Of a DNA stretch of 52,832 bases, positions 36,579-39,410 are shown in pieces (the first letter of the stretch is position 1; every line of letters starts with the position of its first letter). Origin of the DNA: Chitinophagaceae bacterium (GTDB taxonomy: Bacteria > Bacteroidota > Bacteroidia > Chitinophagales > Chitinophagaceae); the NCBI GenBank assembly GCA_947454715.1, contig CANGMZ010000007.1, positions 1 through 52,832 of the forward strand, in the 5' to 3' direction. The notes beneath the pieces were generated by a model that did not search any database, was not told where the DNA came from, and saw nothing but the letters and a program-made list of their open reading frames with translations. Made by a program: the position numbers and the translations under genes.

Positions 36579-36613
36579 ACATACAAACAGCGTACTAGAA
36601 ATTAATATTGAAA

Positions 36614-37072
36614 ATGAAAATATTGAAAACTAAAGAATTGACGAGTCTTCAATCTGAGCAAATCAATCAGTTATGGAATGATGAATATCCACTAAAATTG
36701 AAAAATCGATTTTCTATTTTACTTGATGACACAGAAAGCCATAATCACTACTTAATCGAAGATTCTGAAAAAAATGTTATTGCATGGGCCGTTGATTTTA
36801 AAAAAGAAAACCAAATTCGATTTTCAATTATTGTTTCGTCAATTCACAAAGGAAGCGGGCTTGGAGGACTATTAATTAATAAGCTGAAAGAAGAAAATAA
36901 AGAATTTTATGGTTGGGTTATCGACCACAATAATGATTTAAAAAGTAACGGAGAAAATTACAAATCGCCTATGCCTTTTTATATGAAATACGGATTTGAA
37001 ATTTTAACTGATATAAGAATTGACAGTGAAATGATAACGGCTGTATTGATTAAATGGACTTCAAACAAATGA
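36614..37072 (+). CDS. GNAT-family N-acetyltransferase, AT-rich
   Basis: 152 residues starting at the ATG (a TTG two codons earlier is less likely). The beta-alpha core shows HYLIEDSEKNVIAWAVDF, IRFSIIVSSIHKGSGLGGLLINKL (acetyl-CoA loop HKGSGLGG) and PFYMKYGFEIL. Substrate unknown. The gene is distinctly more AT-rich and Lys/Asn-rich than thrS and infC, and it interrupts a conserved gene order, so recent acquisition is plausible. No promoter box or terminator stands out around it. Confidence 0.82.
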   Translation: MKILKTKELTSLQSEQINQLWNDEYPLKLKNRFSILLDDTESHNHYLIEDSEKNVIAWAVDFKKENQIRFSIIVSSIHKGSGLGGLLINKLKEENKEFYGWVIDHNNDLKSNGENYKSPMPFYMKYGFEILTDIRIDSEMITAVLIKWTSNK

Positions 37073-37399: not shown

Positions 37400-37963
37400 A
37401 TGCAGAAAAAACCAAAAGGTAAACCATTTTTCAGACCCCGTTTACCACAAAATGAGCACCGCTTAAATAATGAAATAACTGCACCACAAGTACGTGTTAT
37501 TGGTGATGATATTGAACCGGGCATTTACCCTATCGCAGAAGCCATCAAAATGGCTCAGGCGCAAGAAGTAGATCTTGTAGAAATATCTCCCAATGCTGTT
37601 CCTCCGGTATGTAAGCTCATTGACTATAAAAAATTCCTTTACGAGAAAAAGAAAAAGGAAAAAGAGCAAAAAGCTAAGGCTAAACAATCTGAAGTAAAAG
37701 AGATTCGATTCACGCCTAACACCGATGATCATGACTTTGATTTTAAAGCTAAACATGCAGAAAAGTTCTTGCAGGATGGCAATAAAGTGAAATGCTATGT
37801 ACAGTTCAAGGGTCGTGCGATCATGTTTCAGGAGCGTGGTGAATTGCTGTTGTTGAAATTCGCGGAACGCCTTGCAGAACATGGCGGTCTTGAATCAATG
37901 CCAAAGATGGAAGGTCGCAGAATGTTGGCGATATTCTCACCAAAAAAGAAAGGTAAAGCATAA
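37400..37963 (+). CDS. infC: Translation initiation factor IF-3
   Basis: 187 residues. IF-3 binds the 30S subunit, checks the start codon and prevents 50S joining. N-domain: NEHRLNNEITAPQVRVIGDD through VDLVEISPNAVPPVCKLIDYKKF; lysine-rich linker helix; C-domain with KEIRFTPNTDDHDFDFKAKHAEKFL and GRAIMFQERGE. The visible start is ATG rather than the rare AUU used for autoregulation in enterobacteria. The usual followers rpmI and rplT are not in this window; a pair of putative small RNAs sits in their place. Confidence 0.96.
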   Translation: MQKKPKGKPFFRPRLPQNEHRLNNEITAPQVRVIGDDIEPGIYPIAEAIKMAQAQEVDLVEISPNAVPPVCKLIDYKKFLYEKKKKEKEQKAKAKQSEVKEIRFTPNTDDHDFDFKAKHAEKFLQDGNKVKCYVQFKGRAIMFQERGELLLLKFAERLAEHGGLESMPKMEGRRMLAIFSPKKKGKA

Positions 37964-38027
37964 TTTATTGATAGCCAGATAAGTGAATAGTCTTTGAAAA
38001 ATATTTAACAAAAAAATCGAAGAAAAA

Positions 38028-38060
38028 TTTGCTCAGCTAACAAAAAGTATATTATCTTTG
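38028..38060 (+). promoter_or_regulatory. Promoter of the first putative small RNA
   Basis: TTTG (38028-38031), 21-nt spacer, TATCTTTG (38053-38060): a full consensus match, with predicted start near 38065. No long coding frame follows. Confidence 0.6.
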
Positions 38061-38064
38061 TATT

Positions 38065-38158
38065 GTTAAATCAATCAGTAAAAATAGTTCTCTTATATAA
38101 AGAAGTTTTCATGGTGATAGGGTTTATAGGGGCTGGCCTGTTCTCAGGCTGGCTTTTT
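38065..38158 (+). ncRNA. Putative small RNA or attenuated leader, copy 1
   Basis: About 94 nt from the predicted start to the end of a T-run. The last 56 nt (38103-38158) are repeated at 38236-38291 with one difference. The repeat closes with a hairpin (GCCTG-TTCT-CAGGC extended by wobble pairs to about 12 bp) and five T residues, the form of an intrinsic terminator. Identity stops at the T-run, which suggests an RNA unit under selection. An alternative reading is a 22-codon frame (38111-38179, MVIGFIGAGLFSGWLFQKTL...). I know no named RNA family with this sequence. Confidence 0.5.
38103..38158 (+). repeat. 56-nt direct repeat, copy 1
   Basis: Identical to copy 2 except G at 38113 (A at 38246). 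Contains TTTTCAT, GTGATAGGGTTTATAGG and the terminator-like hairpin. Copies are offset by 133 nt. Confidence 0.95.
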
Positions 38159-38179
38159 CAAAAGACTCTTCATTTTTGA
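38111..38179 (+). CDS. Possible 22-residue hydrophobic micropeptide
   Basis: ATG-initiated frame, mostly hydrophobic with a G..GAG..SG pattern (IGFIGAGLFSGWLF), preceded by a purine-rich AAAGAAG. It crosses the terminator hairpin. In copy 2 the ATG is changed to ATA, but the next codon GTG could start a related 25-residue peptide (38247-38324). Coding is only a possibility; perfect nucleotide identity between copies is explained as well by RNA function or recent duplication. Confidence 0.2.
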   Translation: MVIGFIGAGLFSGWLFQKTLHF

Positions 38180-38206
38180 AGGAATGATTTTTATTAAAAA
38201 GCTTTG
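38175..38206 (+). promoter_or_regulatory. Promoter-like sequence before the second small RNA
   Basis: TTTG (38175-38178), 20-nt spacer, AAGCTTTG (38199-38206), seven of eight matches to TAnnTTTG. Confidence 0.4.
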
Positions 38207-38210
38207 AACA

Positions 38211-38292
38211 AATTGAGCAAACCATCTGTTTGCAAAAGTTTTCATAGTGATAGGGTTTATAGGGGCTGGCCTGTTCTCAGGCTGGCTTTTTT
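38211..38292 (+). ncRNA. Putative small RNA or attenuated leader, copy 2
   Basis: About 82 nt. It begins with a 6-bp hairpin (GCAAAC-CATCT-GTTTGC, 38217-38233) absent from copy 1, followed by the shared 56-nt element ending in hairpin and six T residues. It ends 38 nt before the ATG of the ten-repeat secreted protein, so it could be an independent RNA or a leader that controls that gene by attenuation. Confidence 0.45.
38236..38291 (+). repeat. 56-nt direct repeat, copy 2
   Basis: Second copy of the element at 38103-38158, 55 of 56 bases identical. Flanks differ on both sides. Confidence 0.95.
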
Positions 38293-38330
38293 GTTTTATT
38301 TATCTTATATTCACAGCAAAATAATCACCA

Positions 38331-39410
38331 ATGCAGCGATCTGGATCCCTACTGCTGTTCTTATTATTGCTCTCTATATCTGCCATAGCGCAGCCCTTCG
38401 CTACTTATGTCAATCTGCAAAATGAGCTCATGGTATGGGACAAAGGCATGATTCATAAAATTGACTATATGCCGCCTACGCTCATAAAAACAGGTCGCAT
38501 AGCCATCCCTTATCTCGACAATTCCAGAACATTTAAAATATACTATAACAACAGTACGCAAAAAGTAAATGCAGGCTTTACCAATGCATTTTACGCCACC
38601 GACAATCTGGTCGTATATCTTAACCAAAAGTCACTTAACGTATTTGACAAAGGCCTGACCAAAAACCTTACCCCTATATGTGATCAATACTATATTGGCG
38701 ACAGTCTGGTAATGTATCTGGACGGGCTGAAAAGCGACTATAAAGTATACTATAATGGTCAGATACAAGTACTGGAGTCGTTTGTGCCGGACAGTGTTTT
38801 ATCCGGACTCAGTGTTTCTGACAATATCATTGCATACAACAACTTTGCAAATCAGTTCAAGATATTTTTCAGAGGGTTGAAAATTCCTCAGGAAGATTAT
38901 CCGGTGAGCAGTTTTGATGCAGGTCGCAGCACGGTTGCGTATGTAGATGCAGACCGTAGATTCAAGATCTTTCATAATGGTCAAACCTTTCTTATTGACA
39001 ATTTCCCTCCCCAATCGTACCATGTAGGCGACAATCAGGTAGCCTTTGTGAGCAGCGATGGGTATTTTAAAATCTTCTACGGAGATAGCGTACGCACAAT
39101 GGGCTTCTTCAACCCTACCTACCAGGTCACAGACAACATTATTGCGTACAAAGACCCATCAGGTTATTTCAAGGCGTTTTATAAGGGAGAAATTACAGAC
39201 CTCGAAAATTATTACCCGGAAAATATAATTATCCAATACAATTCCATTGCCTATATCAACACAAACAACACCCTCAGGTTGTTTACAGAAGGGGAAGTGT
39301 ATGATGTTACCAATGCCGACCTAAGTAGCTGGCAACTCAACTACGATGTAATTAACTACCAGATAGGTCAAGGTATTTTTAAAGTATTCTACAAAGGCAC
39401 TGAATATTAA
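38331..39410 (+). CDS. Secreted protein of about ten 35-residue repeats
   Basis: 359 residues. Signal peptide (LLLFLLLLSISAIAQ), then the whole protein is tandem repeats with consensus N.(I/V)AY.D....FKIFY.G......(F/Y)P......GD. Clear units include STVAYVDADRRFKIFHNG, NQVAFVSSDGYFKIFYGD and NIIAYKDPSGYFKAFYKG; earlier ones are more diverged and the last is incomplete (FKVFYKGTEY). Each unit would give about four short beta-strands, so a propeller-like or solenoid fold is plausible. I recognise no named family. No C-terminal sorting domain, so periplasmic or outer-membrane-associated. It lies directly downstream of the putative small RNA pair. Confidence 0.7.
   Translation: MQRSGSLLLFLLLLSISAIAQPFATYVNLQNELMVWDKGMIHKIDYMPPTLIKTGRIAIPYLDNSRTFKIYYNNSTQKVNAGFTNAFYATDNLVVYLNQKSLNVFDKGLTKNLTPICDQYYIGDSLVMYLDGLKSDYKVYYNGQIQVLESFVPDSVLSGLSVSDNIIAYNNFANQFKIFFRGLKIPQEDYPVSSFDAGRSTVAYVDADRRFKIFHNGQTFLIDNFPPQSYHVGDNQVAFVSSDGYFKIFYGDSVRTMGFFNPTYQVTDNIIAYKDPSGYFKAFYKGEITDLENYYPENIIIQYNSIAYINTNNTLRLFTEGEVYDVTNADLSSWQLNYDVINYQIGQGIFKVFYKGTEY

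What the first reader, a model, noticed from the sequence alone, without database searches (positions are those of the whole stretch)
38065..38292. Tandem putative small RNAs carrying a 56-nt element with a terminator
Two copies of a 56-nt sequence, 55/56 identical and 133 nt apart, each end in a GC hairpin plus T-run where identity stops. Copy 1 has a full-consensus Bacteroidota promoter (TTTG-N21-TATCTTTG); copy 2 has a near-consensus one (TTTG-N20-AAGCTTTG). Predicted transcripts are about 94 and 82 nt. Flanks differ, so selection or recent duplication maintains the core. I know no named RNA family that fits.
Basis: partly seen in the sequence, partly recalled or inferred. Interest (0 to 1): 0.72.

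Follow-up and report, generated by a model that had tools for sequence, protein, structure and literature searches.

The report
Paired start-codon-targeting small regulatory RNAs
Next to a translation-factor gene lie two tiny RNA genes from an almost unchanging, many-copy family that resembles a gut-bacterial family known to switch off protein production at start codons, so this kind of control may reach well beyond gut bacteria.

Summary
The 56-nt copies at 38103-38158 and 38236-38291 differ at one base and each ends in a terminator hairpin. They belong to a multicopy family absent from Rfam at gathering scores, strongly matched in 48 of 244 Chitinophagaceae genomes. The pair downstream of infC is old: in 23 of 24 infC loci with two or more copies, copy 1 reads CATGGTG and copy 2 CATAGTG. 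Over 23 loci the 28-nt 5' part is about 99% identical to the window, infC third codon positions 47%, the spacer at shuffled level. The stem covaries; a peptide is not supported. Homologues place copy 2's promoter at the core: its RNA is about 58 nt, not 82.

The 5' part resembles the FopS/GibS sRNAs of Bacteroides, which pair with start-codon regions. It fails Rfam's FopS threshold (17.9 of 56 bits), but each model weakly finds the other family. A sister family with the same UUUUCAU occupies 92 of 244 genomes; one genome has both. UUUUCAU is antisense to AUGAAAA, the commonest start sampled here. Likely mechanism: translational repression by 5'-seed pairing, perhaps with an RRM protein. Against it: nine minor copies lack UUUUCAU, no target was found, no transcript has been seen.

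The parts
37400..37963 (+). infC (translation initiation factor IF-3), the conserved upstream neighbour
   Evidence: ORF, Pfam IF3_N and IF3_C; synteny with the RNA copies in 35 of 80 infC loci
38028..38060 (+). copy 1 promoter: TTTG 38028-38031, N21, TATCTTTG 38053-38060 (Bacteroidota sigma-A type)
   Evidence: sequence; 47 of 69 class-G upstream regions (90 nt) have a TAnnTTTG, mononucleotide-shuffled mean 4.3
38065..38159 (+). copy 1 small RNA (class G), predicted, about 95 nt, with about 38 nt leader
   Evidence: predicted from promoter geometry and terminator; folding z-score -3.15
38097..38103 (+). ATAAAGA element directly before the class-G core; role unknown (perhaps a processing site)
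   Evidence: majority consensus ATAAAGA over 69 class-G upstream regions, not in every one
38104..38131 (+). copy 1 near-invariant 5' part AGTTTTCATGGTGATAGGGTTTATAGGG (its last bases also pair in the hairpin); contains UUUUCAU, antisense to AUGAAAA
   Evidence: 98.6% mean identity to the window over 23 infC loci
38128..38157 (+). copy 1 terminator hairpin, 13 pairs, then T-run
   Evidence: fold; covariation in A1
38203..38232 (+). copy 2 promoter: TTTG 38203-38206, N18, TCTGTTTG 38225-38232
   Evidence: positional conservation in 53 class-A upstream regions
38237..38294 (+). copy 2 small RNA (class A), predicted, about 58 nt, with the conserved part at its 5' end as in FopS
   Evidence: promoter position; fold; R1 match 38237-38298 at 89.8 bits, but the copy is in R1's training alignment
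38237..38264 (+). copy 2 near-invariant 5' part AGTTTTCATAGTGATAGGGTTTATAGGG
   Evidence: 98.9% mean identity to the window over 23 infC loci
38261..38290 (+). copy 2 terminator hairpin, 13 pairs, then T-run
   Evidence: covariation

Best explanation
The two copies are genes for trans-acting small RNAs of a multicopy family that works like the FopS/GibS sRNAs of Bacteroides. Copy 2 starts at its conserved part. Copy 1 carries the same part behind a leader of about 38 nt and an ATAAAGA element. [quoted passage not shown] Exported and envelope proteins beginning AUG-AAA-A are the likeliest targets. The hairpin ends and stabilises the RNA. The genome's RRM protein probably binds the RNA and modulates it. 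Shown here: family, conservation, promoters, hairpin, no sign of peptide selection, weak two-way sequence kinship with FopS, presence of an RRM gene. Inferred: transcription, start-codon pairing, repression, RRM binding.
For: Conservation: 28-nt part 98.6% and 98.9% over 23 infC loci against 47% at infC third codon positions and 91% at positions 1+2; spacer 0.47, shuffles 0.50. Stem: 39 cells with two-sided changes against 11.1 in shuffles, 0 of 500 reaching it; 6 of 13 pairs. Promoters: TAnnTTTG in 47 of 69 class-G and 35 of 53 class-A upstream regions, shuffled means 4.3 and 4.5; in class A at a fixed place, as by eye in the FopS loci. FopS kinship: R1 hits the FopS site in 13 of 13 FopS loci tested, E 0.045-0.47 in 76 kb; RF04319's E<=1 matches over 60 genomes include family copies in G011, G015, G021 and G036; 5' part against FopS p = 0.006, against family B p = 0.003 by shuffled alignment. 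A and B almost exclude each other: 48 and 92 of 244 genomes, 1 shared, 18.1 expected. AUGAAAA is the commonest start heptamer sampled, 50 of 572 starts against 7 of 571 internal ATGs; these genes more often have a hydrophobic N-terminus, 33 of 50 against 189 of 522. Pairing energy to start regions is lower than for 60 of 60 shuffles of the RNA. FopS-10 pairs with the start region of susC mRNA and blocks its translation (PMC11697453, sections 12 and 13). One RRM_1 match in the own genome.
Against: No transcript data. Of 125 distinct copies found by their GATAGGGTTTATAGGGGCTGG part, 13 lack TTTTCATRG at one mismatch; three of these still have TTCATAG and one a degenerate form, but nine have no such stretch, and in two of them (L135, L289) a TAnnTTTG box lies right before GATAGGG: UUUUCAU is dispensable in some copies. 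With UUUUCAU kept and the rest shuffled, preference for starts over internal ATGs is not special (29 of 40 shuffles do as well). Raw energies are not lower at starts than at internal ATGs (-8.86 against -9.13; the difference stands out only against shuffles, reached by 2 of 60). Near-perfect antisense 18-mers in four genomes exceed the reversed control clearly only in G004; of 20 non-self sites 13 were looked at, 5 keep an ATG, and none of the 5 is a convincing gene start. RF04319 scores 17.9 and 16.8 of 56 bits, gives no E<=1 match in the own genome, and has E<=1 matches in 51 of 60 genomes, so weak matches are common. In one search a site in L249 away from any FopS-like element scored better (E 0.008) than any FopS site. 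FopS copies are near-identical, so 13 of 13 is not 13 independent tests. In one search one measure (further pair types, 20 against 19.5) shows no excess. A and B follow clades.
Confidence: 0.57

Rival explanations
1. The RNAs act mainly by binding protein, as sponges for an RRM protein or a translation factor, and the invariant stretch is a protein site rather than an mRNA-pairing seed.
For: Near-invariance over 28 nt exceeds what short seeds need; beyond UUUUCAU no general start preference was found; nine copies lack UUUUCAU but keep GATAGGGTTTATAGGGG and at least part of the hairpin. The part contains UAGGG twice, and all 18 aligned family-B copies contain UAGGAUA, close to the RbpB motif GUAGGAUA quoted in PMC12119571 (passage). 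RbpB at high concentration titrates FopS-10 from its targets.
Against: FopS and GibS with the same architecture have demonstrated mRNA pairing; UUUCAU is kept across the A, B, FopS and scattered sequences aligned (24 rows, chosen for that resemblance), and 112 of 125 family copies keep UUUUCAURG within one mismatch.
Confidence: 0.28
2. Copy 1 encodes a small hydrophobic peptide (MVIGFIGAGLFSGWLF...) and the repeat is a small-protein gene.
For: The window's copy 1 has an open frame of 22 aa from the ATG inside CATGG; 63 of 64 class-G copies keep ATG.
Confidence: 0.03
3. The copies are just infC terminators, or remnants of a mobile terminator-bearing repeat, with no trans function.
For: Copy 1 lies right after infC; copies end in terminators; further copies, some truncated, are scattered in many genomes.
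Against: Conserved promoters; the part before the hairpin is as conserved as the hairpin and survives when the hairpin is replaced (L139); no transposase recognised by eye among neighbours of 18 loci, though profiles and target-site duplications were not examined; no match in the plasmid and phage records or the viral contigs searched.
Confidence: 0.07
4. A cis-acting leader (such as an L20-type ribosomal leader) controlling the downstream gene.
For: Weak L20_leader match, 23.5 bits of 58.7; place next to infC.
Against: Far below threshold; my motif scan found no rpmI/rplT in the downstream sequence held for any of the 35 infC loci with copies (307-4000 bases), against 29 of the other 45; other copies lie beside unrelated genes.
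Confidence: 0.03

Closest known systems
FopS sRNAs, Rfam RF04319 (Bacteroides thetaiotaomicron; PMC11697453)
   Same: Multicopy; conserved single-stranded 5' part beginning near UUUUCAURG; terminator hairpin; TAnnTTTG promoter just before the conserved part; RRM protein in the genome; each model weakly finds the other family
   Different: 17.9 of 56 bits only; the rest of the conserved part differs (GUGAUAGGGUUUAUAGGG against GUAUUAGAUUUAAGGUU); ordered tandem pair at infC; class-G form with leader and ATAAAGA; other bacterial family; targets unknown
GibS sRNA, Rfam RF04182 (B. thetaiotaomicron; PMC7366714, passages)
   Same: 5' single-stranded seed paired with start-codon regions in that species
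   Different: 20.9 of 115 bits; the GibS model is 142 positions long and the RNA has a second seed
Sister family B described here (92 of 244 Chitinophagaceae genomes)
   Same: 5' UUUUCAUAGGAUAAGGUUUAA invariant in 18 aligned copies; promoter and terminator layout
   Different: Longer unpaired part (about 45 nt), varied hairpins, found with family A in one genome only

Membership tests
FopS (RF04319) | reaches the Rfam gathering score (56 bits) | tested here: not met
   17.9 and 16.8 bits; 0 of 60 family genomes over cut-off, 7 of 247 class genomes over it
FopS (RF04319) | multicopy paralogues in one genome | tested here: met
   2 in this genome, 1 to 11 matches in the 48 strongly matched genomes
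FopS (RF04319) | single-stranded conserved 5' part followed by a terminator hairpin | tested here: met
   by prediction and conservation:
FopS (RF04319) | R1/R1' seed sequence | tested here: inconclusive
   UUUUCAUGGU shared, then diverges; alignment p = 0.006; R1 model hits 13 of 13 FopS sites at E 0.045-0.47
FopS (RF04319) | sigma-A type promoter directly upstream of the seed | tested here: met
   class A: TTTG at -10 in 35 of 53; class G has it further upstream
FopS (RF04319) | bound by RRM protein RbpB | not testable with these tools
   an RRM_1 protein is encoded; binding needs CLIP or EMSA
FopS (RF04319) | represses SusC-like mRNAs at the translation start | not testable with these tools
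   only a general start-codon bias from UUUUCAU found
GibS (RF04182) | gathering score 115 bits | tested here: not met
   20.9 bits
L20_leader (RF00558) | gathering score 58.7 bits | tested here: not met
   23.5 and 15.0 bits
small hydrophobic peptide gene | conserved start, frame and stop | tested here: not met

The most novel reading that the evidence does not exclude
The element is one branch of a Bacteroidota-wide superfamily of anti-start-codon sRNAs, with FopS/GibS, Chitinophagaceae families A and B and scattered class members as branches. Each lineage has frozen a different long 5' seed around the shared UUUUCAU, and usually one branch per genome acts as a global brake on AUGAAAA-starting exported proteins in bacteria that hardly use Shine-Dalgarno pairing. 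The infC pair would be two differently expressed forms (immediate, and leader-bearing and processed) of the same regulator.
Probability: 0.33. Interest if true: 0.8.

Novelty: new variant of a known kind. Interest (0 to 1): 0.6.

Why it matters
Small-RNA control in Bacteroidota has been worked out mainly in Bacteroides. A near-frozen multicopy sRNA family, and a sister family that almost never shares a genome with it, in Chitinophagaceae would suggest that start-codon-targeting sRNAs are an old, widespread way of control in a phylum that initiates translation largely without Shine-Dalgarno pairing. It gives covariance models and candidate loci, several of them in named strains.

Tried and rejected
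Peptide coding: rejected. Leader of copy 1 masking the seed: the window's copy folds that way, but over 43 class-G leaders pairing is weaker than in all 100 shuffles; two control cores gave the same sign, so leaders simply seem unstructured. Near-perfect antisense targets by 18-mer with up to 3 mismatches in four genomes, non-self sites against reversed-pattern control: G000 4 against 3, G004 12 against 3, G005 2 against 4, G006 2 against 3. 13 of these 20 sites were looked at (whose reading frame was off; redone for the five with an ATG): four give ORFs of 7-16 aa and one (L178) lies inside an open frame. A class-wide promoter-plus-CTATGAAAA pattern matched 69 of 295 genomes; its reversed control had many hits too and I did not tally it; its spacing of 2-6 would also miss FopS, so it says little. 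The A model over 247 class genomes found, besides two genomes of the family, four at E 1e-4 to 1e-3 outside it, of which one (L397) looks alike; the B model one genome of the family and one outside it. Plasmids, phages, IMG/VR: no match (IMG/VR by one exact pattern). The first duplex test with 295 genes was marginal (4 of 100 shuffles). Literature: in the listings I saw no paper on such an RNA in Chitinophagaceae; the library holds open-licence papers only.

Rows dropped before counts: 46 of 63 distinct cores went into alignment A1; left out were one unrelated match (L085:135), three copies with a broken end (L119, L121, L128) and 13 near-duplicates. Duplicates were removed by flank before the counts. 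The 23 loci had to have two copies within five substitutions of a consensus, which biases identity slightly upward; L044 was not in it. The genome lists were copied by hand. One search crashed after printing. The identity figures were off by one base and replaced.

Full report
OBSERVATION. The two 56-nt copies are at 38103-38158 and 38236-38291, 55 of 56 identical, downstream of infC (37400-37963) and before a 10-bladed beta-propeller gene (38331-39410). Each ends in a 13-pair hairpin and a T-run. Rfam has no match over the gathering score in the window.

FAMILY. BLAST of the element finds two copies in its own genome, other matches there being short, and matches at E <= 0.01 in 17 of 99 genomes searched (its own included), all in the same family; none of the 39 genomes from other families of the order matched. 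A covariance model (R1, from 46 distinct copies) matches 98 of 244 family genomes at E <= 0.01: 48 strongly (E < 1e-10; 1 to 11 matches each) and 50 only weakly (E above 1e-5). Loci include named strains such as Flavipsychrobacter stenotrophus RB1R16 and Taibaiella soli.

THE infC PAIR. Of the 80 best infC relatives kept, 35 have copies downstream; three of the other 45 have under 100 bases downstream. Of 24 loci with at least two copies, 23 have CATGGTG first and CATAGTG second (L047 has a third, CATAGTG); the exception, L056, has CATAGTG twice. The 11 single copies are all CATGGTG, two of them near contig ends. A motif scan found rpmI/rplT downstream in none of the 35 and in 29 of the other 45. 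So this is an old ordered pair.

SELECTION. In 23 loci with two copies the 28-nt part is on average 98.6% and 98.9% identical to the window, the stems 97.4% and 97.7%, infC codon positions 1+2 91%, position 3 47%, and the spacer 0.47 where shuffles give 0.50. In alignment A1, 96.8% of stem cells pair (shuffles 91.7), 6 of 13 pairs change on both sides (shuffles 3.8; 15 of 500 reach it), 39 cells change on both sides (11.1; 0 of 500), and further pair types show no excess (20 against 19.5); shuffles ignore relatedness. L139 keeps the 5' part with a replaced hairpin.

PROMOTERS. Class A (copy 2 type, 53 distinct upstream regions) has TTTG at -37 (20 of 53) and TAnnTTTG at -14 (29 of 53) relative to TTTTCAT. 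With the -12 to -5 geometry of this box (PMC9723704, passage) the RNA begins at the conserved part, 38237 in the window. The FopS loci have the same layout by eye. Class G (copy 1 type, 69 regions) has a TAnnTTTG upstream at variable places, often about 50 nt (47 of 69 have one; shuffled 4.3), and a majority ATAAAGA directly before the core.

KINSHIP. The FopS model (RF04319) gives 17.9 and 16.8 bits here, threshold 56. Over 60 family genomes it never passes the threshold; 51 of 60 have some match at E <= 1, the own genome none. These weak matches include copies of this family in G011, G015, G021 and G036 and a second family, B (sequences). In the other direction R1 hits the FopS site in 13 of 13 FopS loci (E 0.045-0.47) and the B element in 9 of 9 tested loci (E 5e-4 to 0.065, one in a shifted register). 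Six further matches in that search: two at look-alike elements (L251, L144:1249) and four elsewhere, the best of them (L249, E 0.008) better than any FopS hit. Alignment of the 5' parts against shuffles: A-FopS p = 0.006, A-B p = 0.003, B-FopS p = 0.0006. A chosen set of 24 sequences keeps TTTCAT and the second base after it invariant. Family B (model R2) occurs in 92 of the same 244 genomes at E <= 1e-4; A and B share one genome, 18.1 expected; by genus 18 and 40 of 101, one shared, 7.1 expected. Clade structure explains part of this. Outside the family both models find almost nothing.

MECHANISM. FopS and GibS pair at start-codon regions; FopS-10 blocks susC translation in vitro and RbpB relieves it (PMC11697453: abstract, sections 8, 12, 13, 28 and passages; PMC7366714: passages). 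UUUUCAU is antisense to AUGAAAA. In 572 genes from about 24% of the own genome, ATGAAAA is the commonest start heptamer (50) against 7 of 571 internal ATGs, and 33 of 50 such genes have a hydrophobic N-terminus against 189 of 522 others (crude rule; starts were taken as the first ATG of ORFs of at least 120 aa). Pairing to start regions is stronger than for all 60 shuffles, but raw energy is not lower at starts than at internal ATGs, and with UUUUCAU held fixed the remainder adds no start preference (29 of 40 shuffles do as well). No individual target is claimed. One RRM_1 match, a protein of 152 aa with a low-complexity tail, was found in the own genome.

AGAINST THE SEED READING. Of 125 distinct copies found by GATAGGGTTTATAGGGGCTGG, 112 have TTTTCATRG within one mismatch just before it. 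Of the 13 others, three (L285, L287, L288) keep TTCATAG, one (L124) is degenerate, and nine lack it; L135 and L289 have a TAnnTTTG box directly before GATAGGG, so they may be RNAs without UUUUCAU. Many of these loci were fetched because BLAST or R1 found them, so the proportion is not a survey. This strengthens the protein-site rival.

ALTERNATIVES. Peptide, terminator-only, cis-leader and seed-masking readings are set out above with their tests. A protein-binding role is the main rival and may hold together with pairing.

VERDICT. Real, conserved, almost certainly a small RNA pair; likely a FopS-like start-codon regulator; not a member of RF04319 as that family is defined.

Noticed in passing
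L142 1502-1580, L310 148-226 and other B loci (alignment A3): A second multicopy RNA family (B), below the RF04319 threshold, with an almost invariant 45-nt 5' part and varied terminators, in 92 of 244 Chitinophagaceae genomes, up to 11 matches in one genome.
   Followed up: partly
L135 and L289 (minus strand; copies found): Copies that lack UUUUCAU but have a TAnnTTTG box directly before GATAGGGTTTATAGGGG and the hairpin: possibly a short seedless form of the RNA.
   Followed up: partly
L144 1249 and 1504: Two different variants of the UUUUCAUAGG element about 255 nt apart in one genome.
   Followed up: no
L159 about 1501, L274 (element printed): A shorter form, TTTTTCATAGGTTAGCAACGGCTGGC plus hairpin, in two genomes: possibly a third family with hardly any unpaired part.
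   Followed up: no
window 36608-37072 and 37963-38331: infC lacks rpmI/rplT downstream in this clade (motif scan) and a GNAT-like ORF (named by eye) lies between thrS and infC.
   Followed up: partly
L397 about 1501: TTTTTTCATGGCAGTAGGGTTTAAAAG plus hairpin in a genome of another family: possible distant relative.
   Followed up: no
window 38097-38103: ATAAAGA conserved before class-G cores, after an otherwise little conserved leader; possible RNA processing site.
   Followed up: partly
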